From the NCBI RefSeq assembly GCF_032190615.1, contig NZ_JAVLAT010000001.1, positions 1 through 64,000 on the forward strand: a DNA stretch of 64,000 nt, written 5' to 3'. The notes under the pieces were generated by a model. The model saw nothing but the letters and a program-made list of their open reading frames with translations, had not been told where the DNA came from and made no database searches. Origin of the DNA: Brucella pseudogrignonensis. Lineage in GTDB: Bacteria > Pseudomonadota > Alphaproteobacteria > Rhizobiales > Rhizobiaceae. Positions 760 through 27,878 of this stretch are shown piece after piece. The translations under genes were made by a program, and so were the position numbers. Position 1 is the first letter of the stretch, and every line of letters begins with the position of its first letter.

Positions 760-764
760 TCTCG

Positions 765-1427: not shown

Positions 1428-1461
1428 ATCTCACCCTCTTTGTCCAGAAAGGACATTATCA

Positions 1462-2682: not shown

Positions 2683-2697
2683 GTTCTGATCAAATCG

Positions 2698-2724: not shown

Positions 2725-2742
2725 GATCTGAAGGAGATTGCC

Positions 2743-2925: not shown

Positions 2926-2928
2926 TAA

Positions 2929-3495: not shown

Positions 3496-3497
3496 TC

Positions 3498-4879: not shown

Positions 4880-4956
4880 CCCAATCACCTGAAACCGGGC
4901 CTCAAGCCCTATCAAGGCTGGCGTATTGCTGGCCCGTTTTCGCATGGAGAAATAAC

Positions 4957-5950: not shown

Positions 5951-8568
5951 TGGCGACTGACGTTGAACGCCTTGTCGTGGCTATGGAGGCCCGCACGGCC
6001 TCTTTTGAAAAGGCGCTCAACCGGGCAAATGGCGTTGCTAATCAACGCGCTCGCCAGATCGAGAAGCGCTTTTCCACGATGAACGACAACATCAGTCGTT
6101 CATTTCAGAATATGCTTCGTGCTGGTGCTGCGATCGGTGGCCTTGGCATTGGTGTAAGTGAAATCCAGCGTATGGCTGACACTTGGACTGATTTGTCCTC
6201 TCGTGTAGGCCTTGCTGTCGGGGATATGGATAAAGCTCCTCAGGTAATGGAGCGTATCTATGACATGGCGCAGCGCACCTATTCCGGTATGCAAAACACG
6301 GCTGAAAGCTTTCTCACAAATGCGGGCGCTCTCAAAGAGCTTGGTTACAATACCAATCAGCAGCTTGATTACACCGAAGCATTGAATAACGCGCTCGTGG
6401 TGTCAGGCGCTAAGTCTGATCGCGCAGCTCGTGTGATTGACGCTCTCGGCAAGTCGATGGCGGCGGGTAAGCTTCAAGGCGACAACCTGAATACGGTGAT
6501 TGAAGTTGGTGGACGTGTTGCCGAAGTGCTTGCCGCCCAGCTCGGCATTGGTGTCAATCAGCTTCGCGAAGCAGGCAAGGAAGGCAAGATCACCGGTGAC
6601 GTGATCTACAAGGCTTTGACCACGCGCTTGCAGGAACTGACAGCCGAAGCCGAGAGCATGCCTGCAACTATATCTGACGGGTTTCAGAAGGTCGCCAACG
6701 GCTTATTGAAGTTCGTCGGGACAATGGATCAGGCGTCTGGCGTTTCTGCTACTATCGCGCAAGGACTGGTTTTTGTCGGTGATAACTTCGAGCATGTTGC
6801 ATTAGCAGCAGCGGCAGCGGCGACAGTTCTTCTGGGGCAGTATGTTCCGGCGATGGCACGAGTGGCGCTGGCAGGCGCGACGATGGTTGCAACTAACCCG
6901 TTCTTGCTTCTGATTACCGCGATTAGCTCGGCTACGTTCGCTCTCTCGGCGTTCGGTGACCAGATCCAGCCGATTGCAGGCGATATGGCTAATCTTCAGG
7001 ATTACGCCTCGGTAGCATGGGAAACCATCAGTCAGGGCGCAATGGATGTTGCGTCACTTGTTCGCGATGATCTTCTAGGGGCGCTAAACCTGATATCCGA
7101 TGCATTAGGCGGCAATGAGGTTAGCTGGGAAGATGTTTGGGAAACAACCAAGGGTGCAGCAAATAACATTATCGGTGCTGTTGGCCTTCTCTACGATACC
7201 ACCGTAACGACATTTACTAAGCTGCCCGGTGCTGTTGCCGAAGCCGTCATTAATGCCATGAACTCGATGATTGCAGGCATAGAAAGCGGGCTTCAAACAG
7301 TTTTAAATGGCATCAACCGCGTTGCATCTGCGTTGAATGCCCTAGACCGGTTTGTCGGCGTCGCACCGATACTGCCAGAAGATATGACAGTAAATCTTGG
7401 TAGGCTTGATAACTCATTCGCGGGAGCTGGTAAGGCTGCTGGCGATGCATATGGCAAGGCTTTGACAAAAGCCGCTCAAGATCACCTTGGGAAGCTTGGC
7501 GAGAATTGGCGACAGTCTGCAAATGCCAGAGCGAGGGAAAGGACTGCCAATAGTAAAGATAACGACCTAGTTGCGCCGACAAGAAGTTCAGGCGGCGGCG
7601 GTTCGTCAAATGGTGGAGCAGGCGGATCGTCTGGTGGCGGCAAGGGGCGCAAAGGTGGAGGTAGGTCTCGACCTGATGAACTACAGCGCGAAATCGAGCA
7701 GATCAAAGAGCGCACAGCATCCCTACAGGCAGAAACGGCAGCTCAAGCCCAGATTAACCCACTGATTGATGATTACGATTACGCAATCACTAAGGCCCGC
7801 GCCACGCAAGAACTGTTGAATGCTGCCAAGAAAGCTGGGATTGAAATTACCCCAGCTTTGAAAGAGCAGATTGAGGGTTTGGCAGAAGGTTATGCCAATG
7901 CCACGGTTGAAGCTAATAAGCTCGCAGAAAGCCAAGAGCATGCGCGTGAATTGTCGGACTTCTTGAAAGGCTCCATGATGGATGCTTTTCAGTCGATGAT
8001 CCCGGCCATTGAAACCGGCAATTCGGCGCTTGATAAATTCCTGAATACGCTCATTGAGGCCGTCATGCAGGCAACCTTGCTTGGCAAAGGTCCACTGGCT
8101 GGCATCTTCGGCGGCGGTGGGTCGGGGATATTCGGCGGTATTGGCAAGCTGCTTGGTTTCGACAAAGGCGGCTATACTGGCTCTGGTGGAAAATACGAAC
8201 CGGCTGGCGTGGTTCATAAAGGCGAATATGTCTTTGACCAAGACGCGGTTCGCGCAGCTGGTGGGCCTGCCGCTTTGGATGCGATGCGCCGTGGCCTGAA
8301 AGGCTATGCCAACGGTGGTTATGTCGGCCCGTTGCCAACATCAAATGCACCGACCGCGCCCGGTATCAAAGGTATGCGGGGGCAGGGTTCAAACGAAACA
8401 ATACGCATCATGTTGCAAGATGACAGTGGGCGAATGGCTAAAATCGCCGATCAGCGAATTCAGACGGCATCCGGTGCGATTGTACAGGTTTCTGTTCAGC
8501 AAAGCACCCGAACCGTTCAGCAGTCGCTACCGTCAATGATAGCCGACGCTCAAACAAGAAACATGTGA
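5950..8568 (+). CDS. Tail tape measure protein
   Basis: 872 residues. Length and composition identify the tape measure, whose helical body sets tail length and is ejected with the DNA. Residues about 60-250 hold the tape-measure domain (SSRVGLAVGDMDKAP, AARVIDALGKSMAAGKLQGD, LTTRLQELTAEAESMPATIS). Hydrophobic stretches at about 275-330 could span the membrane during injection. A Gly/Ser linker (residues about 545-575) is followed by a coiled coil and a C-terminal region with FDKGGYTGSGGKYEPAGVVH, common in tape-measure C-termini. The start overlaps the chaperone stop. Confidence 0.93.
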   Translation: MATDVERLVVAMEARTASFEKALNRANGVANQRARQIEKRFSTMNDNISRSFQNMLRAGAAIGGLGIGVSEIQRMADTWTDLSSRVGLAVGDMDKAPQVMERIYDMAQRTYSGMQNTAESFLTNAGALKELGYNTNQQLDYTEALNNALVVSGAKSDRAARVIDALGKSMAAGKLQGDNLNTVIEVGGRVAEVLAAQLGIGVNQLREAGKEGKITGDVIYKALTTRLQELTAEAESMPATISDGFQKVANGLLKFVGTMDQASGVSATIAQGLVFVGDNFEHVALAAAAAATVLLGQYVPAMARVALAGATMVATNPFLLLITAISSATFALSAFGDQIQPIAGDMANLQDYASVAWETISQGAMDVASLVRDDLLGALNLISDALGGNEVSWEDVWETTKGAANNIIGAVGLLYDTTVTTFTKLPGAVAEAVINAMNSMIAGIESGLQTVLNGINRVASALNALDRFVGVAPILPEDMTVNLGRLDNSFAGAGKAAGDAYGKALTKAAQDHLGKLGENWRQSANARARERTANSKDNDLVAPTRSSGGGGSSNGGAGGSSGGGKGRKGGGRSRPDELQREIEQIKERTASLQAETAAQAQINPLIDDYDYAITKARATQELLNAAKKAGIEITPALKEQIEGLAEGYANATVEANKLAESQEHARELSDFLKGSMMDAFQSMIPAIETGNSALDKFLNTLIEAVMQATLLGKGPLAGIFGGGGSGIFGGIGKLLGFDKGGYTGSGGKYEPAGVVHKGEYVFDQDAVRAAGGPAALDAMRRGLKGYANGGYVGPLPTSNAPTAPGIKGMRGQGSNETIRIMLQDDSGRMAKIADQRIQTASGAIVQVSVQQSTRTVQQSLPSMIADAQTRNM

Positions 8569-16969: not shown

Positions 16970-17066
16970 GCCTGACACAGCCGTCTATCTCGCCGGAAAC
17001 GATATGAAAGCCGGGCAGGGGATTGCAGGACATAATGCCTACGGGCAGAAAGCATGTGGCTGGTAA
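16863..17066 (+). CDS. Outer-membrane spanin lipoprotein (Rz1-like), embedded in the i-spanin gene
   Basis: 67 residues. The first 107 bases overlap the i-spanin gene in a different frame, as Rz1 does in lambda. The product starts MRKLSTWMLLLCASGLAAGC, a classical lipoprotein signal with lipobox A-A-G-C, so Cys20 would be lipidated, leaving about 48 residues in the periplasm with two more cysteines (in SPC and KACGW). This meets the definition of an o-spanin. Its stop overlaps the next start (TAATG). Confidence 0.85.
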   Translation: MRKLSTWMLLLCASGLAAGCSATSSPCAGWKQISVKPDTAVYLAGNDMKAGQGIAGHNAYGQKACGW

Positions 17067-17353
17067 TGGGTGATGATATTAAGTGGCTGATCGGTATTGC
17101 TGTCACTTTTGGGCTGGCATTGATTGCGGCATTCCGATCTTTGTCAGCCTCGATGAAGGCTGGTGATGATGCTTTGCACGAGAGGATTAACCGCACTCGT
17201 GACGATTATGTGCGCCGCGTCGATCTAGACGGTCACGTCAGCCAGCTGCGCGATGGCATGAAAGAGCTGAAAGATGAAACCCGCGATAGTGCCAAGGAGA
17301 CAAACAAACGTCTCGATCAGGTTCTGGCCGTTCTGGCTCAGGATAAGAAGTGA
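17066..17353 (+). CDS. Single-span membrane protein with coiled coil, lysis cassette
   Basis: 95 residues from the ATG that overlaps the o-spanin stop. One N-terminal hydrophobic span (IKWLIGIAVTFGLALIAAFR, residues 5-24) is followed by a long charged helix (HERINRTRDDYVRRVDLDGH and DGMKELKDETRDSAKETNKR) likely to form a coiled coil. Proteins like this follow the spanins in several rhizobial phages. It could be a holin or pinholin-like protein, since no other holin gene is seen in the cassette, but the single span and long soluble tail make that uncertain. Confidence 0.75.
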   Translation: MGDDIKWLIGIAVTFGLALIAAFRSLSASMKAGDDALHERINRTRDDYVRRVDLDGHVSQLRDGMKELKDETRDSAKETNKRLDQVLAVLAQDKK

Positions 17354-17481
17354 CATGATTGGTCTTAGCCGAGGTTTTGGTTCGTATCTTATGACGTGCG
17401 CGGTAAAGGCTTCTGCAACTATTTAGCGAAAATTAAACTTCTTGCGCTAGAGCCGCTTAATTCGCGTACTTGGGGGAAATC
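17354..17481. other. Short intergenic region after the lysis cassette
   Basis: I see no coding frame. It ends with GGGGGAAATC, the ribosome binding site for the following gene. Base composition becomes more AT-rich here, marking the beginning of the accessory segment. Confidence 0.5.
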
Positions 17482-18183
17482 ATGACGTTTGCACAGTACA
17501 AAAGGCTGCTTCTTGTGGCGGCCATTCCGCTTATTTTATTGGGTGTACTTGCAACTGAAGTTTTCTTGCCATTACCTAGGTTTGCTCATGTTGGCTGCAC
17601 AAAAATGGGGCAGGAGCAGTGTGTCAACTGGGGAGAATACGACAGTGAACTTTACAAGTTGAAGAAAAGCCAACAGGCGGCATGGTTCAACGTTATCAAT
17701 CGGGACGAAAAAGGCAGCGTTAATGTTCTGGCATTGGCCGGAATAAGAATGATTATGCCTAAAATAACAGAGGTAAAAAGCCTTATAACTAATGACAGTG
17801 AAGTTCATAGATCAATGGAAAGATTGATTGGATTAGACGTTCCAGTCCAACTTGGTGATATTGAGGGCCGCAGTAAAATAGATACAACATCTAAAGATCG
17901 TTTTTATTGTAATACATTAATATTGGAAAACAATGCAGATAGCTATGCGTCTGCATGCGAAGTAGGAGCATGGAGCGGTTCAATTCGATTTGTTCCAAAC
18001 GACAACGATAGAGATATGTTAATTGAATTGCAGTCGGCTCTGCATGAAAAACAGATGCAATGGGATAATGTGCTTATCCAAGCAAGGCTAGTTGGATATT
18101 CCATTTTTTTGATAGGATTTCTTCTTATTTCAATGATTATCTGGCTAAGTGTTCGCGCCTATAAATTTGTCAAAAACGGCTGA
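17482..18183 (+). CDS. Two-span membrane protein of unknown function, AT-rich
   Basis: 233 residues from the ATG with GGGGGAAATC in front of it. There is a hydrophobic N-terminal span (about 9-28), a periplasmic domain of roughly 170 residues with cysteines (HVGCTKMGQEQCVNW, FYCNTLIL, SACEVG) that could form disulfides, and a C-terminal span (about 203-223). I do not recognise the family. Codon use is clearly more AT-rich than in the structural genes, suggesting a late acquisition. Position after the lysis genes and the membrane topology fit a superinfection-exclusion or other moron function, which is inference. Confidence 0.7.
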   Translation: MTFAQYKRLLLVAAIPLILLGVLATEVFLPLPRFAHVGCTKMGQEQCVNWGEYDSELYKLKKSQQAAWFNVINRDEKGSVNVLALAGIRMIMPKITEVKSLITNDSEVHRSMERLIGLDVPVQLGDIEGRSKIDTTSKDRFYCNTLILENNADSYASACEVGAWSGSIRFVPNDNDRDMLIELQSALHEKQMQWDNVLIQARLVGYSIFLIGFLLISMIIWLSVRAYKFVKNG

Positions 18184-18192
18184 ATTTAGAAC

Positions 18193-18366
18193 TTAAATTT
18201 TCTTACTCGTCCGGGTCCGTTCCCCGCTCGCCCATGTGAATACCGTTGGCGATTTGGGGTAGAGCCTTGGCCGCTTCCAGCCTATCTCAGCCTGCTCTGC
18301 ATTGTCTGAGGCTTCAACCAGTTTACCGGTGAGTCCCGCTAACGAACCATCGCGCAGTCTGGACAT
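18193..18366 (-). CDS. Possible 57-residue protein, low confidence
   Basis: An ATG with AGGA close in front opens a 57-residue minus-strand frame (MSRLRDGSLAGLTGKLVEAS at the start, basic RTRTSKKI at the end). Codon choice looks coding. The open frame continues about 15 codons upstream without an ATG, so this may be the 3' remnant of a larger lost gene. I do not recognise it. Confidence 0.35.
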   Translation of the reverse strand: MSRLRDGSLAGLTGKLVEASDNAEQAEIGWKRPRLYPKSPTVFTWASGERTRTSKKI

Positions 18367-18537
18367 TTGTCCTGCTGCTTCAACGGAACTCTCGTTTTGA
18401 ATGAAATAAATGTTCGTTTATAAGATTGACGAAACCTGTTCAATTAAGTCGATTTTAGTTTTTCTCGTCTAACAGCATTTTATCTCAGCATTGAGGAAGT
18501 TGGCTGACACTTTACAAACGAATAGAGGGTTGGGCTT

Positions 18538-18765
18538 ATGACACTATCAACTAATGATGTTGTAAAGAGATGTATTGAAGCTGCTGATCTTGCATATCGT
18601 GATACTTACTTCGTCCGCCCAACCGGAGGAGATATAAATTTGGCGAGAAAGGTTGCGCTTTTGCATGCATTCCAAGCCTTTGTCTTAACGGCAGAAGATC
18701 TAGACCATAACCCTGCTCACTTACTAACTTTTGCCAAGATAAGTAATGATTTTGATGGGTTTTGA
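18538..18765 (+). CDS. Small protein of unknown function
   Basis: 75 residues, acidic and probably all-helical (VVKRCIEAADLAYRDTYFVR and ARKVALLHAFQAFVLTAEDL). GAGGG lies before the ATG. It stands alone between an AT-rich intergenic stretch (18367-18537) and the leftward SRAP gene, which converges with it. No domain is recognised. The gene looks real from codon use, but its function is unknown. Confidence 0.55.
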   Translation: MTLSTNDVVKRCIEAADLAYRDTYFVRPTGGDINLARKVALLHAFQAFVLTAEDLDHNPAHLLTFAKISNDFDGF

Positions 18766-18804
18766 TCATAATTTTCGGTCATTTTAATCAACCTCTTCCG
18801 ATAC

Positions 18805-19455
18805 TTATAAACAATCAGAAGTCAAATCGATCAAGTCAGCGTCTGGTAAAGGCTTCTGCATTTCCTTAGCTTCATCCCATGGCGCACGTAACCAAGTTTC
18901 GATCTCCTCAGTTGTGCGCAGGATTACAGGCATGGCCTTCGGGTGAACCGGCTTAACAACTGCATTAGGCTCAGTGGTCAGAAAGCCGAATATATCAACT
19001 TCAACTGGCCCTTCCTTTTTCTTCCGCATGCCTTTCCATGTCGTCCATATTCCAGCAAAAGCAAAAAGCGGCTTTTCTTCAGTCAGAGCAAACCAGTGCA
19101 GCGGTTTGCGCTTTGTCTTCGGGTCTGGTTCTTGCCCGTATTCGGAAAAGGATGTCGCAGGAACAACGCAACGGCTTTCAATGCCCTGCCAGCGCCTCCA
19201 ATGGGGCGAGGTGAGATTGCGTATGTTTGTGACGCCGCTGTCTGCTTCACCCTTCACATAGATTGGTGGTGTCGGCATTCCCCATCGAAGGTGTGCCAGC
19301 TCATGCTCACCATCGGTCAAGTTACGCAGAACGGGCGCTGGATAGTCGGGATAAACGTCTAGCTGTGGATCAACACGGTTCGTCACGTCGCCAAACTTCG
19401 GAAACAGCCGGCGCATGGCCTCATGTGTCGTGGTGAGGTTATAAAGATTGCACAT
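18805..19455 (-). CDS. SRAP (SOS response-associated peptidase) family protein, YedK/HMCES-like
   Basis: 216 residues. SRAP proteins bind abasic sites in single-stranded DNA and form a thiazolidine crosslink through Cys2, shielding the lesion. The essential residues are present: Cys2 in MCNLYNL, Asn77 in VTNIRN, Glu105 in SFSEYGQE and His171 in VHPKAMPVIL. Length is normal for the family. An excellent Shine-Dalgarno (AGGAGGATCAC) precedes the ATG. It is probably the last gene of a leftward unit starting at about 20.26 kb whose promoter carries a LexA box, so it would be damage-induced. Phage copies may protect replicating phage DNA. Confidence 0.92.
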   Translation of the reverse strand: MCNLYNLTTTHEAMRRLFPKFGDVTNRVDPQLDVYPDYPAPVLRNLTDGEHELAHLRWGMPTPPIYVKGEADSGVTNIRNLTSPHWRRWQGIESRCVVPATSFSEYGQEPDPKTKRKPLHWFALTEEKPLFAFAGIWTTWKGMRKKKEGPVEVDIFGFLTTEPNAVVKPVHPKAMPVILRTTEEIETWLRAPWDEAKEMQKPLPDADLIDLTSDCL

Positions 19456-19529
19456 GTGATCCTCCTGATGAGGAAAGAATAGCGCGCCAATTGATGCCGC
19501 CCAGATACTCAGCCCGATTGCGAATAGTT

Positions 19530-19775
19530 CTAGCGAGGAATTTTTCTAACACCAAACTGACTTTCACCCTTTGATTTGCAAACCGTGCAACGCATTCGTT
19601 TGTGAAGGTCGATGAAAAAGGTGTGCGTGCCAAACTTGCGCAGAATGATCTTGTGCTGAATGGGCCCGATATGACCACACAGAAAACAATATCCGTGCAG
19701 CTCGTACCACGAAACAATATCCTTGATACGCGTCTCAGGCGGCATTCCTTCTAAGTGACGGGGCTTTGATCTCAT
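19530..19775 (-). CDS. Small protein with two Cys-x2-Cys pairs, possible zinc ribbon
   Basis: 81 residues. CFLCG (about 30-34) and CTVCKSKG (about 63-70) are the two CxxC knuckles of a zinc-ribbon-like fold, joined by a basic middle with HKIILRKFGTH. The ATG overlaps the stop of the gene before it (ATGA). It might bind DNA, RNA or a protein partner. The exact family is not recognised. It is the third of three translationally coupled early genes upstream of SRAP. A competing frame on the same strand (19439-19717) is a shadow. Confidence 0.72.
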   Translation of the reverse strand: MRSKPRHLEGMPPETRIKDIVSWYELHGYCFLCGHIGPIQHKIILRKFGTHTFFIDLHKRMRCTVCKSKGESQFGVRKIPR

Positions 19776-20068
19776 TTTTCAAAGTAGGTTTCCCACGGCT
19801 TAGATTTCATGTCCCATGGATCATGTTTAACGCCGCCATAAAGCCGGATGAACTCTTTCTGACCTTCATCGGTCTGGAACATGGCAATCTCGAAATATTT
19901 GAGATCATGCCGTACGCCACCCCAAAGGTGATAACCACCCAGACGCGTCCGATCATTGAGCATTTCGATAAGATTTGTCCGATGCCAGTCGGTCAAGAAA
20001 AGCACGACCTGAAATGGATATTCCTTATTGATCAGCGTCTTTGACGGCTCACCGCGCGACCTGCTCAT
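19772..20068 (-). CDS. Early phage protein of unknown function
   Basis: 98 residues from the ATG at 20068, which overlaps the preceding TGA (ATGA). An upstream in-frame ATG at 20092 lies inside the previous gene and is less likely. The product is soluble, with TLINKEYPFQVVLFLTDWHR near the start and a YGGVKHDPWDMKSKPWETYF end. No motif is recognised. Coupling on both sides implies that the three products are made together. Position beside a LexA-controlled promoter suggests an early or damage-induced role. Confidence 0.75.
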   Translation of the reverse strand: MSRSRGEPSKTLINKEYPFQVVLFLTDWHRTNLIEMLNDRTRLGGYHLWGGVRHDLKYFEIAMFQTDEGQKEFIRLYGGVKHDPWDMKSKPWETYFEK

Positions 20069-20262
20069 TTTACAAACACTGTCGGCTTCCATCCGCGAGC
20101 AAAGCCCATCGACATGGCAAGGCTGGCATACTCAATCTCTTTGACGAGGAAGTCCCGGTCTTTCAAAAGCGCTTCAATTGCCGCTTTTACATCGCCTTTG
20201 TGATAGGCGAGTACCAATTCAATTTCGTCGTCGTATCCGTTTTCTTGCGTAACCGCATTCAT
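20065..20262 (-). CDS. Small early phage protein, first gene of the LexA-box operon
   Basis: 65 residues from the ATG at 20262, chosen because GGAG stands at the right distance; the frame is open 30 bases further. The sequence is acidic and helical (NAVTQENGYDDEIELVLAYH, then KGDVKAAIEALLKDRDFLV). No domain is known to me. It begins a leftward chain in which each start overlaps the previous stop and which probably continues into SRAP. The LexA box lies 72-86 bases upstream. Confidence 0.75.
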   Translation of the reverse strand: MNAVTQENGYDDEIELVLAYHKGDVKAAIEALLKDRDFLVKEIEYASLAMSMGFARGWKPTVFVK

Positions 20263-20456
20263 TGTACTGCTCCATTTAAAAAGCAGATACACACGCCATC
20301 CGTATATCTGTGTTTGTCACGACCGCCATCGATGTTCTTATTTTGTTCATGTCAATGAAAGAGTCAATCTTGAAATTGAATGTGATCTGAAAAACCAATT
20401 CAAAGGTGTATTATTCAGCATCGGAAACGAAGTCTCTGATCGAAGGAGGCGCTGAG
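20263..20456. promoter_or_regulatory. Divergent promoter region of the early genes
   Basis: 194 bases between a leftward and a rightward gene. It contains the LexA box (20334-20348), AT-rich sequence on both sides suitable for two -10 elements, and an AAGGAGG Shine-Dalgarno at the right end for the GTG-started gene. No exact -35/-10 pair is certain by eye. Confidence 0.6.
20334..20348 (+). promoter_or_regulatory. LexA (SOS) box, GTTC-N7-GTTC
   Basis: GTTC (20334-20337), seven bases, GTTC (20345-20348): a perfect match to the direct-repeat operator of alphaproteobacterial LexA. It lies between two divergent early transcription units, one of which holds the SRAP gene. This supports control of both units by host LexA, though binding has not been shown. 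Confidence 0.75.
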
Positions 20457-21128
20457 GTGGAAAAGCGAAAAGCTGATGCACTTCCCAGATGGTTAACTAA
20501 GGCTAAACTGCAAACTCTTATGCAGATGGATCCAGAGGAAGCCCTTGAAGAAGCGCAGCGCCTGCGAGAGGCTTTCAACAGAAAGCGGCGCGATGATAGA
20601 GCCGCACGTAAAGAGATTGTCGCTCAGCAGGCGAAGAAATGGTCCCGCCGATACAAAGCAAAAAGGCGGGAAACAAGTCGAGCTCGGTTAGCCAAAATCA
20701 AAGTCGAAGACCCAAATTTATATCGCAGTATTTGCGATAGAAAAAATGCGCGTGATCGGGTCAGACGGCGGGGCAAAAAACAAATTCGCACAGACGCGAT
20801 GCGTGAAAAAGACCGCCGAAAATATCAGCGCATCAAGGCACAAGATTTCGCTCGCGCTAACGTCACTGAAATGCGCAAGCTTATCAGTGTTCATGTGCCT
20901 GGCTATCTCATGGCCGCTGCGCAGATGGACGTTATTAATTCCGTGATGGTGCAAATTCTCGATCGGAAAGTTCCGTTCAATGAGCTTGCAGCATGGGTGA
21001 AGAAATCAGTCACCGAATACAATCGCCAGTATGACTACTTCAAAACCGTGTCAATTGATGCGCCAATAGCCGGAACTGACGGACTTACACGGGGTGATAT
21101 GCTGGCTGACGACACCCCCCATTTTTAA
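20457..21128 (+). CDS. Basic phage protein with sigma-factor-like C-terminus
   Basis: 223 residues from a GTG start with a perfect AAGGAGG eight bases upstream; a 17-residue extension upstream is possible but lacks such a site. Residues 30-150 are extremely basic and helical (KKWSRRYKAKRRETSRARLA), suggesting nucleic-acid binding. The end, VSIDAPIAGTDGLTRGDMLA, resembles the segment between sigma-70 regions in which SLDAPIG leads to a GDLLAD-type motif. This could be a late-gene regulator or a divergent sigma-like protein. The LexA box stands in front of it. Function is inferred; overall similarity to sigma factors is limited to the tail. Confidence 0.65.
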   Translation: MEKRKADALPRWLTKAKLQTLMQMDPEEALEEAQRLREAFNRKRRDDRAARKEIVAQQAKKWSRRYKAKRRETSRARLAKIKVEDPNLYRSICDRKNARDRVRRRGKKQIRTDAMREKDRRKYQRIKAQDFARANVTEMRKLISVHVPGYLMAAAQMDVINSVMVQILDRKVPFNELAAWVKKSVTEYNRQYDYFKTVSIDAPIAGTDGLTRGDMLADDTPHF

Positions 21129-21165
21129 TCGCCATTAAGCCGTCGCCAGATTTGCAACACACAAG

Positions 21166-21186
21166 AAAAACCCCGCCGAAGCGGGG
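21166..21186 (-). terminator. Intrinsic terminator of the HipA-like/DUF3037 operon
   Basis: CCCCGC-CGAA-GCGGGG: a 6-bp GC stem with a tetraloop; on the minus strand it is followed by five T. It stands five bases past the DUF3037 stop. The plus-strand gene converging on it lacks a U-run here. Confidence 0.8.
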
Positions 21187-21191
21187 CTCAA

Positions 21192-22040
21192 TCATGCCTG
21201 AAGGTGCTCACGCACTTCATCCTCAATGCGGTCAACGAGTTTCGGAACTTCGCTTTCCTCATATATCCTAGGGGAGAATGGCGCTGATTGTAAAATTTTC
21301 AACGCCCCATCGTATGCATTGCGCAGGCTTTCGTTACGGGGAGCGCCAACAACAAAGTTCAGATTGATATTCTCTGGAGATCCATCATGAACGGCTTCCA
21401 AGTGCCCTCTCCAACGACGCGCCTTATCCTTGATACCATCGGCGTCAGCCAAATCGAAAGAAAGCGCCTCATAAGCATGCCAAACGCCATTTTTCCAAGC
21501 GCGCTTGAATGAAATCTCGTCTGTTTTGCCAGAAACCGTTTTCTCTTCAAAGCTGACTGGAACGTTTCGCTCGTCCAACAACTGCCGCACCGGTCTCCAG
21601 ATCTCATCATCAGTCCGGCGATGAGAGGATCTAACGTCATACTTGCTGACGAACCGCTCATATAGGCGTGCGAAAGTGCCATCCATATTTTTGCTTACAC
21701 CTCCTCCCAGCGACGACCATTGCAATGAGCTATCGTCATGGACTACGGCAAACTTGCCAATAGAGGAGGCATCCATATTTCGGTCTAGCAAGTCTCCGCG
21801 CTCGCACCTTTTGCGATATGAGCTAATCGACCGATCAACGCTTTTCATCACTCTCAAGAACGCTTCTCGCTCGAAGTCGGGAAACACATTCTTTATGCGG
21901 CCAATCGATGTGCGAACTTGAGATTTGACAAAACCAGCTTCGCTCGAATGCATGACGAGCCCAACATTAATGAACTCGCCCGTTACCACATCATGCACAT
22001 ATCTCAGTACGACGTACGTGTATCGATGTTGTTCTGTCAT
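21192..22040 (-). CDS. DUF3037 family protein
   Basis: 282 residues. The beginning, YTYVVLRYVHDVVTGEFINVG, is the DUF3037 signature, followed by a charged helical body (IGRIKNVFPDFEREAFLRVM, then a YRKRCERGDLLD stretch) and a soluble C-terminal half. DUF3037 proteins of unknown function are repeatedly found beside HipA-like kinases, as here: the ATG overlaps the kinase gene's stop (ATGA). The C-terminal domain might be the kinase substrate or partner. It is the last gene of a three-gene leftward cassette and is followed by a clear terminator. Confidence 0.82.
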   Translation of the reverse strand: MTEQHRYTYVVLRYVHDVVTGEFINVGLVMHSSEAGFVKSQVRTSIGRIKNVFPDFEREAFLRVMKSVDRSISSYRKRCERGDLLDRNMDASSIGKFAVVHDDSSLQWSSLGGGVSKNMDGTFARLYERFVSKYDVRSSHRRTDDEIWRPVRQLLDERNVPVSFEEKTVSGKTDEISFKRAWKNGVWHAYEALSFDLADADGIKDKARRWRGHLEAVHDGSPENINLNFVVGAPRNESLRNAYDGALKILQSAPFSPRIYEESEVPKLVDRIEDEVREHLQA

Positions 22041-22876
22041 GTTAGTACCCGTTCGATCTCTACGATGCAGGCATCTATATTATCACGAGCATCCTTAATC
22101 AGTTGTAACGCTGTTGCAACTGCATTGGTTGCCGCAGCCCATTCGTTTGGTATCACATTGCCATAAGAATGAATTCTGTCGTCACTAAGACCGGACCAAG
22201 AAGCTCGAATAGGCTGAAAATCTATTTCTCGCCCTTTCAATCCGTTTCTAAAAATATGAAATCCAGGCTGAGCAAGCACTTCAAGGCCGCCCGGTACCCA
22301 AGGCGGACGCCAACCCAATATAGGTCCTGCTGGGAATGAGAGTTCGTGATCGAAAATTCTTATCTCGTCGCCCTTAACGAGGCAGTTTGGATTGATGTCT
22401 CTTCGATCTGGATTTTGGATAATTCCGTCAAAAGTCAGAATAGCGGCAGCGTATTGACGCATAATTTCGGATACGATGGTCCCGGTTGTCCAGACCGTAT
22501 ATTGTCCTGTTATATGGCGAGATCCAAATGCGATGGCCGAACTATTACCCATTCTATTTTGCTGAGCGATGTCTGGAACGCTATTTACGAATTCACGTGA
22601 TACGGTCACAATAAACGGCTGCGGTACAGGCAGCCCTAAATCTCCCGCCAAGCAAGCGCCAACAGCTTCAATTGCGAGACTGGTGACGCCTCTTTCACAA
22701 CCAGCAGAGAACTTCGCAACGACCTCAACAGCCGTACCGTCATTTTTCTCGCAGGTTAAGAGGCACGGACCTGTTTTGCCGTTCGCCATAGACTTAACAA
22801 ATTCGACTGCGTCAATTACTTCCAGCAAAATCGCCCCCGTTGGGTCAGCCCCGACATTTCGCCTGGCATATCTCAT
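22037..22876 (-). CDS. HipA-like (HipA_2-type) protein kinase
   Basis: 279 residues, shorter than toxin HipA (about 440), matching the short HipA-family kinases. Kinase features are visible: VVAKFSAG with Lys55 as ATP-binding lysine, the catalytic-loop pattern NPDRRDINPNCLV (Asp157, Asn162/164) and the metal-binding IFDHELSF (Asp176). There is no HipB-type repressor gene next to it, so it is not a standard hipBA module. It is translationally coupled to the DUF3037 gene and lies 64 bases after the BRCT gene. A role in defence, dormancy or lysogen maintenance is inference. Confidence 0.85.
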   Translation of the reverse strand: MRYARRNVGADPTGAILLEVIDAVEFVKSMANGKTGPCLLTCEKNDGTAVEVVAKFSAGCERGVTSLAIEAVGACLAGDLGLPVPQPFIVTVSREFVNSVPDIAQQNRMGNSSAIAFGSRHITGQYTVWTTGTIVSEIMRQYAAAILTFDGIIQNPDRRDINPNCLVKGDEIRIFDHELSFPAGPILGWRPPWVPGGLEVLAQPGFHIFRNGLKGREIDFQPIRASWSGLSDDRIHSYGNVIPNEWAAATNAVATALQLIKDARDNIDACIVEIERVLT

Positions 22877-22940
22877 AAAGTGACTGCATTTCCAACATCA
22901 ATGTTCATTGATGAACCAGCACAGCGTTTTAACCGCACCG

Positions 22941-23546
22941 TCAGAGATGCTTGGTCCAGTGTTCTTCGGATATGATAACTATTGGATGCCCCTGATCCCG
23001 CCATTCGCATGCGTTCAAAATCTTGTTCCCAAATGACGAGTGTTTCCAGGCTTCCGTAGCGTACGAGCCTATCACAAGAAAATTTGTCTTTTGGGACACT
23101 CCGCCGGTTGTTCCACCGCGTTCGTGGACAGCCTGCTCGCAATTCCGACGCTGGCCGAAAGTGAATGTGCCAGTGAAAGCGTAGCGCCTGCCTTCGAATG
23201 TGAGCGCCGGTGCAGGACGATCAAGAGGCAAGGATGTCGGCTTTAGAACTTCACCTAGTTCAAAATCGTGGTTTGCAAAACGGTTGAGTGTATCAAGCAA
23301 CTCGGTCTTTTCGTCTTCATCAACCACGCCATCAGCAAGAATTTCATCGACCCGACGAAAAAGAACTCGCATCAACGGCTGATCACTAATGCCCGAGTTG
23401 GCAACTAGCCACTTATGAAGAAACTCGACTTCTGCTTGGTTAATTGCACCATCCGCAACTAACCCACGAGCTAGGCCAATAAGTTCATCAATCTGTCGGC
23501 TGCTGATGCGATCGCCATTCAGACGATTGTATAATGTGTCACGCAT
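22941..23546 (-). CDS. BRCT-domain protein
   Basis: 201 residues. The start chosen is the ATG with GGGGAAG six bases upstream; a GTG five codons earlier is possible. Residues about 1-90 form a helical domain with TerB-like acidic character (DELIGLARGLVADGAINQAE, RVDEILADGVVDEDEKTELL). Residues about 112-201 form a BRCT domain as in NAD-dependent DNA ligases (RYAFTGTFTFGQR, HERGGTTGGVSQKTNFLVIG, then SFGNKILNA). BRCT domains bind DNA ends or phosphopeptides, which is suggestive next to a kinase. It is the promoter-proximal gene of the cassette. Confidence 0.85.
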   Translation of the reverse strand: MRDTLYNRLNGDRISSRQIDELIGLARGLVADGAINQAEVEFLHKWLVANSGISDQPLMRVLFRRVDEILADGVVDEDEKTELLDTLNRFANHDFELGEVLKPTSLPLDRPAPALTFEGRRYAFTGTFTFGQRRNCEQAVHERGGTTGGVSQKTNFLVIGSYATEAWKHSSFGNKILNACEWRDQGHPIVIISEEHWTKHL

Positions 23547-23775
23547 TTGAAGCTTCCCCACACGTTAAAGTGGAGCAAGCAGACTGAGTCGTCAATATGA
23601 TGCTTAAGTAGCAATTTCTTATAATTTGCGGCCCCGATTTGTTTTTGCCGGTTTCAAGCCGACTCACACCGAAAATACATAATTAAAACTGAAACTTAAT
23701 ACCCGATTTAATGTGATTTCCTCTCAGTGGACTCGCGCTGCCTTTTTAGCCATTCGCTATCGTGCAAATTTCAAA

Positions 23776-24006
23776 CTATTTGCTTTCCTCCAAAAGCTTG
23801 ATGAGGCGCTCGTGAGTTCTTTTCATATCGAAAAGATGCTCAATTACCATGCCGAGACAGATCAATACCACACCCGAAACGCATAAGCTGATGCCGCAAG
23901 ACAGGAGGACAAGCCTGTCGGTACCTGTCTCTCCAGCGCCAAAGGCGGCAATCGTTCCCCCGGGAATTAATGCCAATATGCCAATAATTTTTATGAAAAG
24001 ACCCAT
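23776..24006 (-). CDS. Small two-span membrane protein
   Basis: 76 residues from the ATG of MGLFIKIIGILALIPGG. Two hydrophobic spans (about 4-22 and 30-53) are separated by a short loop with GAGETGTDRL, and the end is a charged helix (HLFDMKRTHERLIKLLEESK) on the cytoplasmic side. I do not recognise the family. It stands alone between the BRCT cassette and the DNA-binding gene run. A superinfection-exclusion role is possible from topology only. The 23547-23775 gap before the BRCT gene is AT-rich and would contain that cassette's promoter. Confidence 0.65.
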   Translation of the reverse strand: MGLFIKIIGILALIPGGTIAAFGAGETGTDRLVLLSCGISLCVSGVVLICLGMVIEHLFDMKRTHERLIKLLEESK

Positions 24007-24059
24007 CGTACCCAACCCACGCTTTCTAACAAGCTGTCAGAGCAAAGCGTAAACGTCAA

Positions 24060-24365
24060 TCAACTCTTCCGCCTGTGCTTCTTTGCCCTTAGCTTATCGC
24101 GCAATGCTTTGAAATCAATTGGCTGGTACTGCTCGAATTTCTGATGCTTCGATGTTCGGACTGGTGCCGTCGCTTCGCGTGGGGTTTCTGTCACCTTGCG
24201 GCTTTCGATGAAAGCCTAATTGTCTGCCGGATCGTATCGGCGGATCGTTCGCAACCCACGACCGACATTTACAAACGGAGTTTCCCCGTCGCTGGTTAGA
24301 TGGAGAAGGTGGCGCACCGAGATCGAGAGTGCTTCGGCTGTTTGTTCAGGCGTCAACAAGTTCAC
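24060..24365 (-). pseudogene. Excisionase-type helix-turn-helix gene split by an amber stop
   Basis: The gene starts at a GTG whose bases overlap the stop of the gene before it (GTGA), giving VNLLTPEQTAEALSISVRHL and then FVNVGRGLRTIRRYDPADN, a MerR/excisionase-like winged helix. A TAG stands at 24216-24218. In the same frame the sequence goes on as AFIESRKVTETP with the continuation of this family's usual ADIxAFIESRK pattern, then a 40-residue basic tail ending at the TGA. So a single-codon nonsense mutation seems to have broken a roughly 101-residue gene. The 49-residue first part could still fold. Confidence 0.7.
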
Positions 24366-25051
24366 GATAAGCCTCGTTCCTGCTCAATTTTCTTCCACGC
24401 ATCCATGCCAGCATCCGTCAAAGCGTAATGAGATATCTGGTTTGTGAAAGTTGGATGATTTCGCGTCTCGATAAATTTGCGAGCGATAAGCCGCTCCCCA
24501 GTATCCGAGCCGCAACCTTTGATCTCGATACACGCAACAAAAACACCAACACCGTGTAGACTAAGGACTTCGAGCGCATGTTTTTCCCGTTTGCCAATCG
24601 GCTTGCTAGGAAGTGAGGCTCGCCACTTATCTTCGGCTTTCTTATAAAGTACGGTGTACTCTTCGCTACCCATGGTCTTGGGATCAAAACCCAGCTTACG
24701 ATAGTGTTCCGCAACAATATAATCGGGATTATCTAAGCGGGATCGGGCTGTTCTATCTTCCGGCGAGGAAGCTTCCGCCCGGTCCCGATCCTTTTTCCAT
24801 GTATCGTAAGGAGAAAGAGCATCATCCTCCCAAACAAACGGAATGTGGTCCCCGCCGTCTTTAGTCGGCCAGTTGAGCATGGCTTTTTCGACCTCGGAGA
24901 CCACCCAAATCTTTCGATTATGCCATTGTTTCGGTGGTGGAAGAAAACCTTCAGTGACCATATTGTCGATAGTGACAACGCTCACACCGATAGATTGAGA
25001 AAGCTCAACGCGGTTCATGCCAAGGCGAGGAATATGACGAGCGGGTTTCAT
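24362..25051 (-). CDS. DNA-binding protein with MerR-like helix-turn-helix
   Basis: 229 residues. The N-terminal 60 form a MerR-type helix-turn-helix (GMNRVELSQSIGVSVVTIDN, TEGFLPPPKQWHNRKIWVVS) similar to excisionase and AlpA folds. A linker leads to a C-terminal domain (HALEVLSLHGVGVFVACIEI, HYALTDAGMDAWKKIEQERG) of winged-helix character. It overlaps the genes on both sides by 4 bases (ATGA before it, GTGA after it). It probably controls excision or early phage genes. The exact role is not known. Confidence 0.75.
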   Translation of the reverse strand: MKPARHIPRLGMNRVELSQSIGVSVVTIDNMVTEGFLPPPKQWHNRKIWVVSEVEKAMLNWPTKDGGDHIPFVWEDDALSPYDTWKKDRDRAEASSPEDRTARSRLDNPDYIVAEHYRKLGFDPKTMGSEEYTVLYKKAEDKWRASLPSKPIGKREKHALEVLSLHGVGVFVACIEIKGCGSDTGERLIARKFIETRNHPTFTNQISHYALTDAGMDAWKKIEQERGLS

Positions 25052-25293
25052 GAGGTTCGCGTTGCCTTTGGCAGTATGCTTTCCAAAAGATTGCCGGGAA
25101 CGTCTGGCAAATCAGTGAAACATGCATCTAACTTATACCTGTCCCAAATTACACGCCCGTCAACGCGTTTTCCTTGGGGCATGCGGCCATCTTTGACCAA
25201 TTCATCAAACTTGGTCGTACCTACTCCGATATATCGTGCGGCATCTTCCCGGTTCATTCCGCGTGGTGGGTAAAAGTAGGGATCACTTTTCAA
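25048..25293 (-). CDS. AlpA/excisionase-like DNA-binding protein
   Basis: 81 residues. The sequence YFYPPRGMNREDAARYIGVG followed by TTKFDELVKDGRMPQGKRVD and GRVIWDRYKLDACF is a very common short helix-turn-helix protein found just upstream of integrases in rhizobial prophages and islands. It is thought to regulate excision. Here the integrase that usually follows is absent. Its ATG overlaps the TGA of the upstream gene and its stop overlaps the downstream start, so the chain is coupled. Confidence 0.85.
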   Translation of the reverse strand: MKSDPYFYPPRGMNREDAARYIGVGTTKFDELVKDGRMPQGKRVDGRVIWDRYKLDACFTDLPDVPGNLLESILPKATRTS

Positions 25294-25472
25294 AAGTAGC
25301 CCTTTCCCTTATCCATATACGTTAATTCGTCTGAAACATCGTTTAGAAGCCCTTGAGGGATCAAACGGATAAAGGCGTTGCCGATCTTAATCTCTGGGAA
25401 GCATCCAGCCCTTTTTGCGCCTTCGCAAATGGCGGTCACTTGTCTGGCAGTTATATCAAGGCGCTTTGTCAT
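25290..25472 (-). CDS. Small phage/integron-associated protein, first in the DNA-binding run
   Basis: 60 residues: DITARQVTAICEGAKRAGCF and PEIKIGNAFIRLIPQGLLND, a pattern repeatedly found before AlpA-like and integrase genes in alphaproteobacterial mobile elements. No enzymatic motif. The ATG at 25472 is not preceded by a strong Shine-Dalgarno that I can see. It is the promoter-proximal gene of a leftward chain of four coupled genes running to 24060. Confidence 0.78.
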   Translation of the reverse strand: MTKRLDITARQVTAICEGAKRAGCFPEIKIGNAFIRLIPQGLLNDVSDELTYMDKGKGYF

Positions 25473-25587
25473 CTATCGACCTCATGCAAATTTGCACGAA
25501 GTTCTCAGAGGCGGAGTGGGTGGTCAAGAGCGAAGAACTCCACAAAAGGGCAGTTGTTTAGAGGTCAGCTTTGGCATAGGCAGGTTC

Positions 25588-25779
25588 ATGATTACAATTC
25601 CATGGTGGTTGGCCATCATTTTTTACATGTCGATGTATTGGCCGGTTACGTTATTGGTAGCTGCTTCAATTGTCGCGACCGCATTCATGGCAACGAATAG
25701 CGTTCGCTGGCGTCTCGCTTGGTCCTTAGTGGCTATTCTGCTTATTGCGCCGGTTATCTGTTTCTATTCAATGATTTAA
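25588..25779 (+). CDS. Small membrane protein with two spans
   Basis: 63 residues from the ATG beginning MITIPWWLAIIFYMSMYWPV. The upstream open frame overlaps the DNA-binding run on the other strand and has no membrane or domain features, so it is left out. The protein is almost wholly hydrophobic: two spans separated by a short NSVRWR loop. Function unknown. It is divergent from the DNA-binding chain. Confidence 0.55.
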   Translation: MITIPWWLAIIFYMSMYWPVTLLVAASIVATAFMATNSVRWRLAWSLVAILLIAPVICFYSMI

Positions 25780-25781
25780 AT

Positions 25782-25817
25782 AAAAAGCCCCGGCACGTCT
25801 CCCAACGTCACGGGGCT
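25782..25817 (-). terminator. Leftward intrinsic terminator
   Basis: AGCCCCG (25786-25792) pairs with CGGGGCT (25811-25817), with an inner ACGT/ACGT stem; on the minus strand five T follow directly. It would end transcription of the leftward gene at 25960-26268. Confidence 0.7.
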
Positions 25818-25959
25818 GCTTGCCTTGGAGCCACAGGGTTTTAAAGACCCCGGCAAGCGGCATGAATTTAGTAATCAGTCACGCTGTTGCAAGACCCCGA
25901 TTTAAATTTTTGTGCTGGCGGGTGTGTCCAAGTTTGGGCAGACCGTCTAGTTGCTCCAA

Positions 25960-26268
25960 CTACGCTAGTAGATTAATAAGATTGAGCAGATAAACAATTG
26001 CTTGAGCCATTGCCGCCGCCGCTGCTGCTGATGCTGCCGCCTTGTTGTAGCGCGTAGATTTTAGCCATTGCTTGCGATGAGATTTCAAATTAGCCGAAAA
26101 CTGCTCAACCCATTCATCCGAAAGGCTGCCTTCTTTATTCTTGTGGTGCTTCGTCGGTGCGATGTCCGGAATATCAATATCGGCTGAGCGAAACCACAAG
26201 ATCGCGGCTGCGACGCCTGCAAATACAGAAATTACGTGTAACGAGATAATAAGAGCGTGCGTCATCAT
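25960..26268 (-). CDS. Membrane protein of unknown function
   Basis: 102 residues. A span near the N-terminus (ALIISLHVISVFAGVAAAIL), a charged soluble middle (HHKNKEGSLSDEWVEQFSAN, then KSHRKQWLKSTRYNKAA) and an alanine-rich second span (about 77-100). A terminator stands at 25782-25817 downstream. It lies close to the presumed right prophage end, so it could be a moron or a host gene. No family is recognised. Confidence 0.6.
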   Translation of the reverse strand: MMTHALIISLHVISVFAGVAAAILWFRSADIDIPDIAPTKHHKNKEGSLSDEWVEQFSANLKSHRKQWLKSTRYNKAAASAAAAAAMAQAIVYLLNLINLLA

Positions 26269-26888
26269 TTCGATTATTCCGGTATTTAGTGCGATTTAGT
26301 TAGATGAGTAAGAAAGCTCATTGGCTATGCAGATCGCTGCCATGAGGGATCAATGAGGCCTTTTCAAGCTAACGCACGAAACCTTGTCGCATGCACAGTT
26401 AACTTGTAGCCTATTGGCGCGAAGTTAAGGATCGGGAACTTAGGGACAATCGTCCCGAAGTGGGAATTTCCCGCTTCAGCGCAATTGGTTCTTTCCGCCG
26501 TGGAAATAACCTGAGTGACGCACAGGTTAAGCATCGTCTGTATTTCGGACTTTGTTCCGACGAAATCCGTCGCCACACCCAACACCGTGAAGCTTTTCAA
26601 ATCGACAGCTTTAATCGCTTTGAAATCTGGGTAGGCAAATTTTCCGACTCACTAATCATCGATTTAGGCAACCCGCAAAAATGCATGCTCGTATTTGCAG
26701 TGCGCGACTCGGTGATTTGCGAGACGAAAACAAAGGTTCATGTCACGCCGCATGTCGCGTGGAATTGCCGATGATTTCAGTAAGTCATTGTTTTTTATTG
26801 GAATTGGTTTGTAATATGCTGCAACATGGAAACTGTGCAGATTGGAACCATCTAATCATCTAAGCTATTGAAAGCATTGAGATTTTAG
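26269..26888. other. Region between last phage-like gene and tRNA-Thr
   Basis: 620 bases without a secure gene. A minus-strand frame of about 89 codons (26364 to about 26630) has coding-like codon choice (FAYPDFKAIKAVDLKSFTVL at its beginning) but no ATG start. It is probably a gene remnant. Neither integrase sequence nor a second copy of the tRNA 3' end is visible here. If the prophage uses tRNA-Thr as its attachment site, the attR junction should lie close to 26889. Confidence 0.5.
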
Positions 26889-26964
<76 letters not shown>

Positions 26965-27104
26965 AGCACAGGCGTGGAATTAGCATATTTTTCACCTGTG
27001 TAAAGCGAAAATTCACATAAAACGGCAATGGTAAGCAAGTTTTGCATATGATAGCCATTTTGGCTGTGGAAACAGCACCGGCTGGTACATTGGAATGGAA
27101 TAAT

Positions 27105-27878
27105 ATGGACGATAAATCCTTGGCGATTCACTTCCTTTCTTCTGGAACAGAGGAATCACTCGCAGCTCAAAAAGAGTTGGTGAAGCGTTATGGTCATGTG
27201 TCAGCCGAAGACGCAGACGTTGTCGTCTCGCTTGGCGGTGATGGGACGATGCTGCAAGCGCTTCGTGATTTCATGAACAGCGGCGTCCCGGTTTATGGAA
27301 TGAACCGTGGTTCGGTTGGCTTCCTTATGAATGAATTTAACCTTGATTATTTGCCTGCGAGAATTCGTGCTGCACAAAAAGAGGTAATACGTCCGCTAGA
27401 GATGATTGCTGAAACAGAACATATGGCCCCCTTCAAAGCGCTTGCGATCAATGAAGTGTCCCTTTTCAGGCAATCTTATCAAGCGGCCAAGGTTCGTATC
27501 ACTATTGATGGTAAGGTGCGACTTGAAGAGCTGGTCTGCGATGGCTTAATGGTGGCAACACCCGCAGGGTCAACCGCCTATAATCTCTCAGCTCAAGGTC
27601 CGATTTTGCCACTAGAAGCGCCACTATTGGCGCTGACCCCAGTAAGCCCGTTTCGTCCAAGGCGCTGGGGTGGGGCCCTTTTGCCCAAACATGTGACTGT
27701 GCGCATGGATTTGCTTGAGATTGAGAAGCGGCCTGTAAACGCTGTTGCAGATAATAATGAAGTGAAATCTGTCCGGGCAGTGACAGTGCGTGAGGCTGTC
27801 GATAGTCAGGTAGCGATCTTGTTTGATCAAAATCATTCTTGGGATGAACGAATTTTGACAGAACAATTCAGACATTAG
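27105..27878 (+). CDS. nadK: NAD kinase
   Basis: 257 residues from the ATG of MDDKSLAIHFLSSG, with GGAATAAT upstream; an open extension of 21 codons upstream is not typical of the family. NAD kinase makes NADP from NAD using ATP. The GGDGT motif (residues 44-48, VVSLGGDGTMLQAL), the NRGSVGFL motif and the ATPAGSTAYNLSAQGPILP segment that binds NAD are all intact. Length matches the alphaproteobacterial enzyme. It stands just right of the tRNA and marks the return to core chromosome. Confidence 0.93.
   Translation: MDDKSLAIHFLSSGTEESLAAQKELVKRYGHVSAEDADVVVSLGGDGTMLQALRDFMNSGVPVYGMNRGSVGFLMNEFNLDYLPARIRAAQKEVIRPLEMIAETEHMAPFKALAINEVSLFRQSYQAAKVRITIDGKVRLEELVCDGLMVATPAGSTAYNLSAQGPILPLEAPLLALTPVSPFRPRRWGGALLPKHVTVRMDLLEIEKRPVNAVADNNEVKSVRAVTVREAVDSQVAILFDQNHSWDERILTEQFRH

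What the first reader, a model, noticed from the sequence alone, without database searches (positions are those of the whole stretch)
21166..23546. BRCT protein + short HipA-like kinase + DUF3037: a compact cassette carried by a prophage
Three leftward genes in one unit: a TerB-like/BRCT protein, a 279-residue HipA-family kinase with intact catalytic residues (Lys55, Asp157, Asp176) but no HipB partner, and a DUF3037 protein coupled to the kinase by ATGA. A promoter region lies before and a tight terminator after. DUF3037-HipA pairs recur in bacteria without known function, and the BRCT partner is a phosphopeptide- or DNA-end-binding module, which suits a kinase signalling system. Location in the prophage accessory zone is where defence or lysogen-protection systems sit. 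The idea of a phage-defence or DNA-damage-triggered system is inference.
Basis: partly seen in the sequence, partly recalled or inferred. Interest (0 to 1): 0.8.

Follow-up and report, generated by a model that had tools for sequence, protein, structure and literature searches.

The report
Prophage kinase toxin-antitoxin pair, plus BRCT
A virus dormant in a bacterial chromosome carries a probable toxin kinase with its matching antidote, a kind of pair already shown elsewhere to protect bacteria against other viruses, and beside it a separate gene of DNA-end-binding type that is mostly found without the pair.

Summary
The three genes are real: TerB-like/BRCT (22941-23546, -), HipA_2 kinase (22037-22876, -; start more likely TTG at 22828, 263 aa) and DUF3037 (21192-22040, -), with ATGA coupling and a terminator-like hairpin. 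They lie in a prophage of about 41.4 kb at tRNA-Thr.

The kinase-DUF3037 pair belongs to a known system. Both proteins match PADLOC candidate PDC-M66A/B over nearly full length. Such pairs are published as DS-6/HipAD and beside Retron-Sda1: kinase deletion or a catalytic mutation ends phage defence, DUF3037 deletion is toxic. A phage record annotates one as 'HipA toxin / HipD antitoxin' after cI.

BRCT is not a conserved third member: DUF3037 lies directly 3' of the kinase in 32 of 36 distinct kinase loci, BRCT occurs in 1 of 36, not adjacent. BRCT relatives often follow a repressor gene (at least 11 of 25 upstream neighbours). In two other prophages BRCT precedes a different Hip module, but enrichment is not significant (2 of 32 against 0 of 58, p 0.12).

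Verdict: new member of a known defence toxin-antitoxin family.

The parts
21192..22040 (-). DUF3037 protein, 282 aa; presumed antitoxin (HipD-like, PDC-M66B)
   Evidence: Pfam DUF3037 1.5e-16; PADLOC PDC-M66B 4.4e-96 over residues 5-279; PHROG 5137 1.2e-36
22037..22876 (-). HipA_2-family kinase, presumed toxin (PDC-M66A); 279 aa from ATG 22876, probably 263 aa from TTG 22828
   Evidence: Pfam HipA_2 8.8e-18; PADLOC PDC-M66A 1.5e-78; invariant K55, D157, D176; start:
22037..22040 (-). ATGA overlap, kinase stop / DUF3037 start
   Evidence: sequence
22941..23546 (-). TerB-like/BRCT protein, 201 aa; neighbour gene, not a conserved part of the pair
   Evidence: PHROG 3989 9e-59; LigA/PolIII-epsilon models; neighbour counts
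21168..21189 (-). intrinsic-terminator-like hairpin after DUF3037
26886..26938 (.). 53-bp attachment core overlapping tRNA-Thr (one prophage end); second copy at G000:C1:2301409-2301461 next to an integrase
26889..26964 (-). tRNA-Thr(tgt), integration target

Best explanation
A prophage-borne two-gene toxin-antitoxin defence module of the HipAD / PDC-M66 type. The short HipA_2 kinase (toxin) and the DUF3037 protein (antitoxin) are made from overlapping genes so that the kinase is held inactive in a lysogen. When another phage infects, the DUF3037 block is lifted and the kinase phosphorylates an essential target, probably in translation by analogy with HipA/GltX (inferred), stopping growth before the intruder multiplies. 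The BRCT gene just upstream is a separate gene that shares the place and perhaps the transcript, with its own DNA-end-related role. Shown here: the genes, families, conserved catalytic residues, gene order and prophage setting. Shown in print for homologues: defence, kinase dependence, toxicity without DUF3037. Inferred: trigger, target, activity of this copy, role of BRCT.
For: PADLOC PDC-M66A/B matches over nearly full length. DUF3037 directly 3' of the kinase on the same strand in 32 of 36 distinct kinase loci, and a kinase beside DUF3037 in 32 of 34. Retron-Sda1 paper, passages read: deleting the HipA kinase removes defence against Bas51, deleting DUF3037 is toxic, RT and ncRNA are not needed. 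DefensePredictor, passages read: DS-6 (renamed HipAD), predicted catalytic mutant loses defence. Phage PhiR5_1 annotates HipA toxin and HipD antitoxin after cI; they match PDC-M66A/B (6e-15, 3.8e-16) and Pfam HipA_2/DUF3037. Near-identical DNA of that pair is in 283 of 5,426 complete E. coli genomes; in the one opened it sits after an S24 repressor-type gene. Catalytic residues invariant.
Against: No experiment on this copy. Divergence from the PhiR5_1 pair is large: kinase 31% over 59% of the query, and no tblastn hit for DUF3037 in the phage collection. DS-6B is described with a second domain, DUF1829, which Pfam does not find here. Four of 36 kinase loci lack a DUF3037 hit by my model: L008, L009, L028 (weak kinase matches, 21-30 bits) and SNW-1 (L116, 18 bits), whose partner scores 21.7 bits by Pfam, below the 22.6 cut-off. 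Two of 34 DUF3037 loci lack the kinase: L075, where 8 kb upstream is held, and L082, cut at the locus edge.
Confidence: 0.85

Rival explanations
1. A true three-part system in which the BRCT protein is the sensor or adaptor that brings the Hip kinase module to DNA ends of invading or damaged DNA, or is the kinase substrate.
For: Same strand, 64-112 bp apart. BRCT is also the next gene upstream of another Hip module, HipA_C kinase + HIRAN protein, in prophage L109, and lies less than 400 bp upstream of one in L130; HIRAN is a DNA-end-binding domain (PMC8262856, passages). Sulfurimonas phage SNW-1 carries BRCT and a HipA_2-DUF3037-like pair 2.8 kb apart. The BRCT protein weakly matches part of candidate defence protein PDC-S48.
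Against: BRCT adjacent in 0 of 36 distinct HipA_2 kinase loci; a kinase of that family in 1 of 46 distinct BRCT loci, on the opposite strand. HipA-family genes in 2 of 32 BRCT phage records against 0 of 58 control records, one-sided p 0.12; all 58 controls were searched for HipA_C but only 18 for HipA_2, and p is 0.40 on those 18. Only 1 of 13 other distinct HipA_C-HIRAN loci has BRCT upstream. In the passages read, the published pairs work without a BRCT gene being mentioned.
Confidence: 0.12
2. Prophage-stability (addiction) toxin-antitoxin pair: the kinase kills or arrests cells that lose the prophage, with defence only a by-product.
For: Toxin-antitoxin order and prophage location; stabilisation is a recognised role of such pairs (introduction of PMC8262856).
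Against: Homologues give phage protection when tested in E. coli (Sda1 operon; DS-6). Not exclusive of the best explanation.
Confidence: 0.2
3. Degenerate or silent cargo.
For: No promoter-like site before the unit by the simple scan; the kinase family is sparse around this genome: 12 of 394 family genomes at E 1e-10, 8 of 397 order genomes at E 1e-3, 1 of 385 class genomes at E 1e-20, the window's own genome counted in each.
Against: Intact frames, invariant catalytic residues, precise ATGA coupling, and 95% (kinase) and 98% (DUF3037) relatives whose longest contigs have the same length, 5,574 bases.
Confidence: 0.06

Closest known systems
HipAD / DS-6 (DefensePredictor, PMC13092281, which cites Brenes and Laub 2025, not held here); HipA-HipD of Escherichia phage PhiR5_1
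   Same: HipA-family kinase with a DUF3037 partner; in PhiR5_1 the two genes overlap in the same order, in a temperate-phage genome, with the same Pfam and PADLOC families
   Different: Low identity to the PhiR5_1 kinase (31% over 59%); DS-6B also has DUF1829; in PhiR5_1 the pair directly follows cI, here a BRCT gene precedes it
PADLOC candidate PDC-M66 and the HipA-DUF3037 pair of Retron-Sda1 (PMC12548924)
   Same: Both window proteins match PDC-M66A/B over nearly full length; the paper names its pair PDC-M66 too
   Different: The Sda1 pair lies by a retron RT and ncRNA; Rfam finds only the tRNA in 17000-27500 here; an RT gene was not searched for
HipBA and HipBST
   Same: HipA-superfamily kinase with a partner acting as antitoxin (by analogy)
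   Different: No HipB or HipS gene coupled; the partner is DUF3037 and lies 3' of the kinase
hipIN (HipI kinase, HipS-HIRAN antitoxin; PMC8262856)
   Same: Kinase followed by a partner gene; BRCT upstream of such a pair in L109 and L130
   Different: HipA_C kinase and HIRAN partner; that L109/L130 are hipIN is my inference from domains
TerB-like/BRCT family PHROG 3989 (phage K139 orf2; Pseudomonas phage phi1)
   Same: Window BRCT protein matches PHROG 3989 at 9e-59; tblastn finds the K139 and phi1 genes
   Different: In those two phages it follows the cI repressor; no repressor identified directly upstream here

Membership tests
HipAD / PDC-M66 | Kinase matches PDC-M66A and HipA_2 | tested here: met
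   1.5e-78 and 8.8e-18
HipAD / PDC-M66 | Partner matches PDC-M66B and DUF3037 | tested here: met
   4.4e-96 and 1.5e-16
HipAD / PDC-M66 | Kinase gene first, DUF3037 overlapping or adjacent 3' | tested here: met
   ATGA overlap; 32 of 36 other distinct kinase loci alike
HipAD / PDC-M66 | Catalytic residues of the kinase kept | tested here: met
   K55, D157, D176 invariant in 25 sequences; their catalytic role is recalled from HipA
HipAD / PDC-M66 | Kinase toxic alone, neutralised by DUF3037 | not testable with these tools
   in print for Retron-Sda1, not for this copy
HipAD / PDC-M66 | Protects against phage | not testable with these tools
   in print for DS-6 and Sda1
DS-6 exact type | DUF1829 on the DUF3037 protein | tested here: not met
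   Pfam finds DUF3037 only, up to E 0.1
HipBA | HipB HTH partner gene coupled to the kinase | tested here: not met
   the coupled gene is DUF3037
hipIN | HIRAN domain partner | tested here: not met
   no HIRAN in the Pfam scan of the three genes
Conserved BRCT-HipA-DUF3037 cassette | BRCT gene recurs next to the pair | tested here: not met
   adjacent in 0 of 36 distinct kinase loci; kinase in 1 of 46 BRCT loci, 2.8 kb away
PHROG 3989 (TerB-like/BRCT protein) | Profile match over the C-terminal two thirds | tested here: met
   9e-59, profile 105-291 of 296
PDC-S48 | Full-length profile match | tested here: not met
   1.5e-5, profile 240-376 of 411 only

The most novel reading that the evidence does not exclude
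The prophage TerB-BRCT protein is a shared DNA-end sensor that can be plugged into different Hip-kinase toxin-antitoxin modules (HipA_2-DUF3037 here, HipA_C-HIRAN in L109 and L130), so that kinase toxins are released by DNA ends of an invading or excising phage.
Probability: 0.1. Interest if true: 0.65.

Novelty: new member of a known kind. Interest (0 to 1): 0.3.

Why it matters
It places a validated kind of defence toxin-antitoxin pair in a prophage at a defined tRNA-Thr site and shows the kinase family to be sparse around this genome. It also shows that a functionally unknown gene family carried by many prophages (TerB-like/BRCT) often follows a repressor gene (at least 11 of 25 upstream neighbours) and now and then precedes Hip-kinase modules, which makes a specific question testable: does BRCT modulate Hip kinases, or only share their address?

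Tried and rejected
Three-gene conserved cassette: rejected by neighbour counts. Close phage relative of the whole region: none in the phage collection; the DNA matches are 261 bp of Ochrobactrum phage POI1126 (two records) and 375 bp of Agrobacterium phage Rivra. Link to solved structures by sequence: the kinase profile finds no HipA entry, DUF3037 finds nothing. BRCT with a single-sequence query gave no viral loci; alignments did. Significance of BRCT-Hip linkage: not reached. Rows dropped: duplicates by identical last 150 residues (nine kinase/DUF3037 loci - L012, L077, L081, L085, L086, L087, L088, L089, L090 - and two BRCT loci, L053 and L102); from the record test 5 of 37 BRCT viral or phage records (L040, L043 as short; L053, L101, L102 as duplicates or near-duplicates) and 22 of the 80 listed control loci (contigs under 25 kb), while 7 of the 32 BRCT records kept are themselves under 25 kb, which lowers their chance of a hit. 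Not every BRCT hit of the phage and plasmid searches was opened (17 + 8 BRCT records, of which phi1, K139, Lodos, PG1, SNW-1, SOG26 and pBB1 were opened). The first neighbour count, on fewer loci (by my count 21 of 24 distinct kinase loci with DUF3037, none with BRCT), agreed with the later one.

Full report
Observation. Three leftward genes are present as described: a 201-aa TerB-like/BRCT protein (22941-23546), a HipA-family kinase (22037-22876) and a 282-aa DUF3037 protein (21192-22040). The kinase stop and DUF3037 start overlap as ATGA, and a terminator-like hairpin (21189-21168) follows the last stop. K55, D157 and D176 are invariant in 25 aligned kinases. Two details change. Of the 120 listed kinase homologues (337 passed the threshold) 67 are 263 aa long, and 13 of 24 homologues in alignment A1 begin with Met at the column of window Leu17 (7 earlier, 4 later); there the window has a TTG codon at 22828 preceded by GGGGG. 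The stretch in front of it is 12 of 16 identical to its relative P0121, which is 95% identical overall. So the kinase is probably 263 aa. No sigma-70-like promoter was found in front of the BRCT gene on its strand; promoter matches in the region (3) are below chance (4.5).

Setting. The 53 bp at 26886-26938, overlapping tRNA-Thr, recur exactly at G000:C1:2301409 next to an integrase. The contig end repeats the window start (7,031 of 7,240 positions identical without gaps), as in a circular contig, and on that reading the core-to-core length is 41,394 bases. Portal, protease, capsid, tape-measure, tail and endolysin genes are recognised. The three genes run opposite to the structural genes, near one end.

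What the pair is. Pfam gives HipA_2 and DUF3037. PADLOC gives PDC-M66A (1.5e-78) and PDC-M66B (4.4e-96) over nearly the full lengths. In print (passages read): in PMC12548924 the HipA-DUF3037 pair beside Retron-Sda1 protects against Bas51 without RT or ncRNA, kinase deletion removes defence and DUF3037 deletion is toxic; in PMC13092281 the pair DS-6, renamed HipAD, loses defence when a predicted catalytic residue is mutated, and a toxin-antitoxin mechanism with possible abortive infection is hypothesised. HipAD is credited there to Brenes and Laub 2025, seen only in its reference list; that paper is not held. The GenBank record of Escherichia phage PhiR5_1 names the two genes HipA toxin and HipD antitoxin, directly after cI; they match the same Pfam and PADLOC families. 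Near-identical DNA of that pair is present in 283 of 5,426 complete E. coli genomes; the one locus opened shows an S24-family peptidase (repressor-type) gene in front.

Is BRCT part of it? All fetched loci held at the time were scanned with profiles made from the three window families. Outside the window's own genome there were 36 distinct kinase loci: 32 have DUF3037 immediately 3' on the same strand, 3 have neither other family (L008, L009, L028) and 1 (Sulfurimonas phage SNW-1, L116) has BRCT 2.8 kb away on the other strand. Of 34 distinct DUF3037 loci 32 have the kinase; L075 lacks it although 8 kb upstream is held, and L082 starts at the edge of the fetched stretch. Of 46 distinct BRCT loci none has a DUF3037 model hit and 1 a weak kinase hit (L116). 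Nine of the BRCT loci and 17 of the kinase loci come from genome searches and hold only about 1.5 kb or less per side, enough for neighbours but not for the wider region. SNW-1's pair is HipA_2 (48 bits, above cut-off) and DUF3037 (21.7 bits, just below 22.6) by Pfam. The two sets were found through the kinase, DUF3037 or BRCT themselves, so they are not random samples.

BRCT homologues. 1,009 proteins passed the threshold, 120 listed; their genomic setting was not examined there, and several sit on megabase-sized contigs. Of 34 phage or viral BRCT loci examined, 25 have a same-strand gene upstream by my gene picking; 11 of those 25 match PHROG 4 'transcriptional repressor', and other repressor families match overlapping numbers, so 11 is a lower bound. 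Named cases are Pseudomonas phage phi1 and Vibrio phage K139 (cI-orf2-glo-int, glo annotated as phage exclusion). Of 25 downstream genes no PHROG family matches more than one. In the window's genus 1 of 35 genomes has PHROG 3989 at E 1e-20; in the family 10 of 384 have the BRCT profile at E 1e-20, own genome counted in both. BRCT here resembles the BRCT of DNA ligase, PolIII-epsilon and RFC1, which points to DNA rather than phosphopeptides (recalled biology).

A lead. In IMG/VR prophage contig L109 the BRCT gene is followed by a HipA_C kinase (Pfam 3e-8) and an ATGA-coupled HIRAN protein (Pfam 9e-10). All 18 kinase relatives fetched, 14 distinct proteins, have a HIRAN gene next to them; BRCT precedes the pair in L118 (the same contig as L109) and in L130 (less than 400 bp away), so 1 of 13 once the ascertained case is left out. 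The pair resembles hipIN of PMC8262856 (abstract, part of the introduction and passages read), whose HIRAN domain the authors suggest may recognise phage DNA ends. That paper's main text does not contain the word BRCT; no held paper joined 'BRCT domain', 'prophage' and 'TerB', and one review of solvent-producing clostridia, seen only in the listing, held BRCT, prophage and phage defense. In whole records, HipA_2 or HipA_C occurs in 2 of 32 BRCT records (one each) and 0 of 58 controls; all 58 controls were searched with HipA_C but only 18 of them with HipA_2. One-sided Fisher p is 0.12, and 0.40 on the 18 controls searched with both. The linkage is therefore a lead, not a result.

Mechanism. 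Best supported: kinase toxin held by DUF3037, released on infection, growth arrest; trigger and target unknown. BRCT is most likely an independent gene. 

Noticed in passing
L109:7935-10295; L130:3438-6210: Prophage TerB-BRCT gene upstream of a HipA_C kinase - HIRAN pair (hipIN-like), a second Hip module type near the same BRCT family.
   Followed up: partly
L116:7621-9146 (Sulfurimonas phage SNW-1): A gene annotated 'aminotransferase' is a HipA_2 kinase by Pfam, followed by a DUF3037-like gene (just below cut-off), in a phage that also carries BRCT.
   Followed up: partly
window 18805-19455 (-): Prophage-borne SRAP (SOS response associated peptidase, Pfam 2.1e-25).
   Followed up: no
window 24362-25293 (-): Two adjacent small proteins resembling excisionase/regulator families (the 24362-25051 one only weakly) near the prophage end.
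   Followed up: no
L073:7619-10262: Left arm of the same prophage region holds genes that look (by eye only) like an MgtC-type membrane protein, an outer-membrane beta-barrel protein and a lipocalin, between phage genes.
   Followed up: no
window 20406-21128 (+): 240-aa convergent gene matching PHROG 24127 (3e-77); 77% DNA match to Ochrobactrum phage POI1126 over 261 bp.
   Followed up: no
G000:C1 end and window 1-7240: Contig end repeats the window start imperfectly (7,031 of 7,240 ungapped positions), as in an untrimmed circular contig, perhaps with an indel.
   Followed up: partly
window 17470-18183 (+): 237-aa putative membrane protein without any Pfam or PHROG match at the thresholds used.
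   Followed up: no
L075:7968-8855: A DUF3037 gene on a viral contig without a recognised HipA_2 kinase in the 8 kb held upstream.
   Followed up: no
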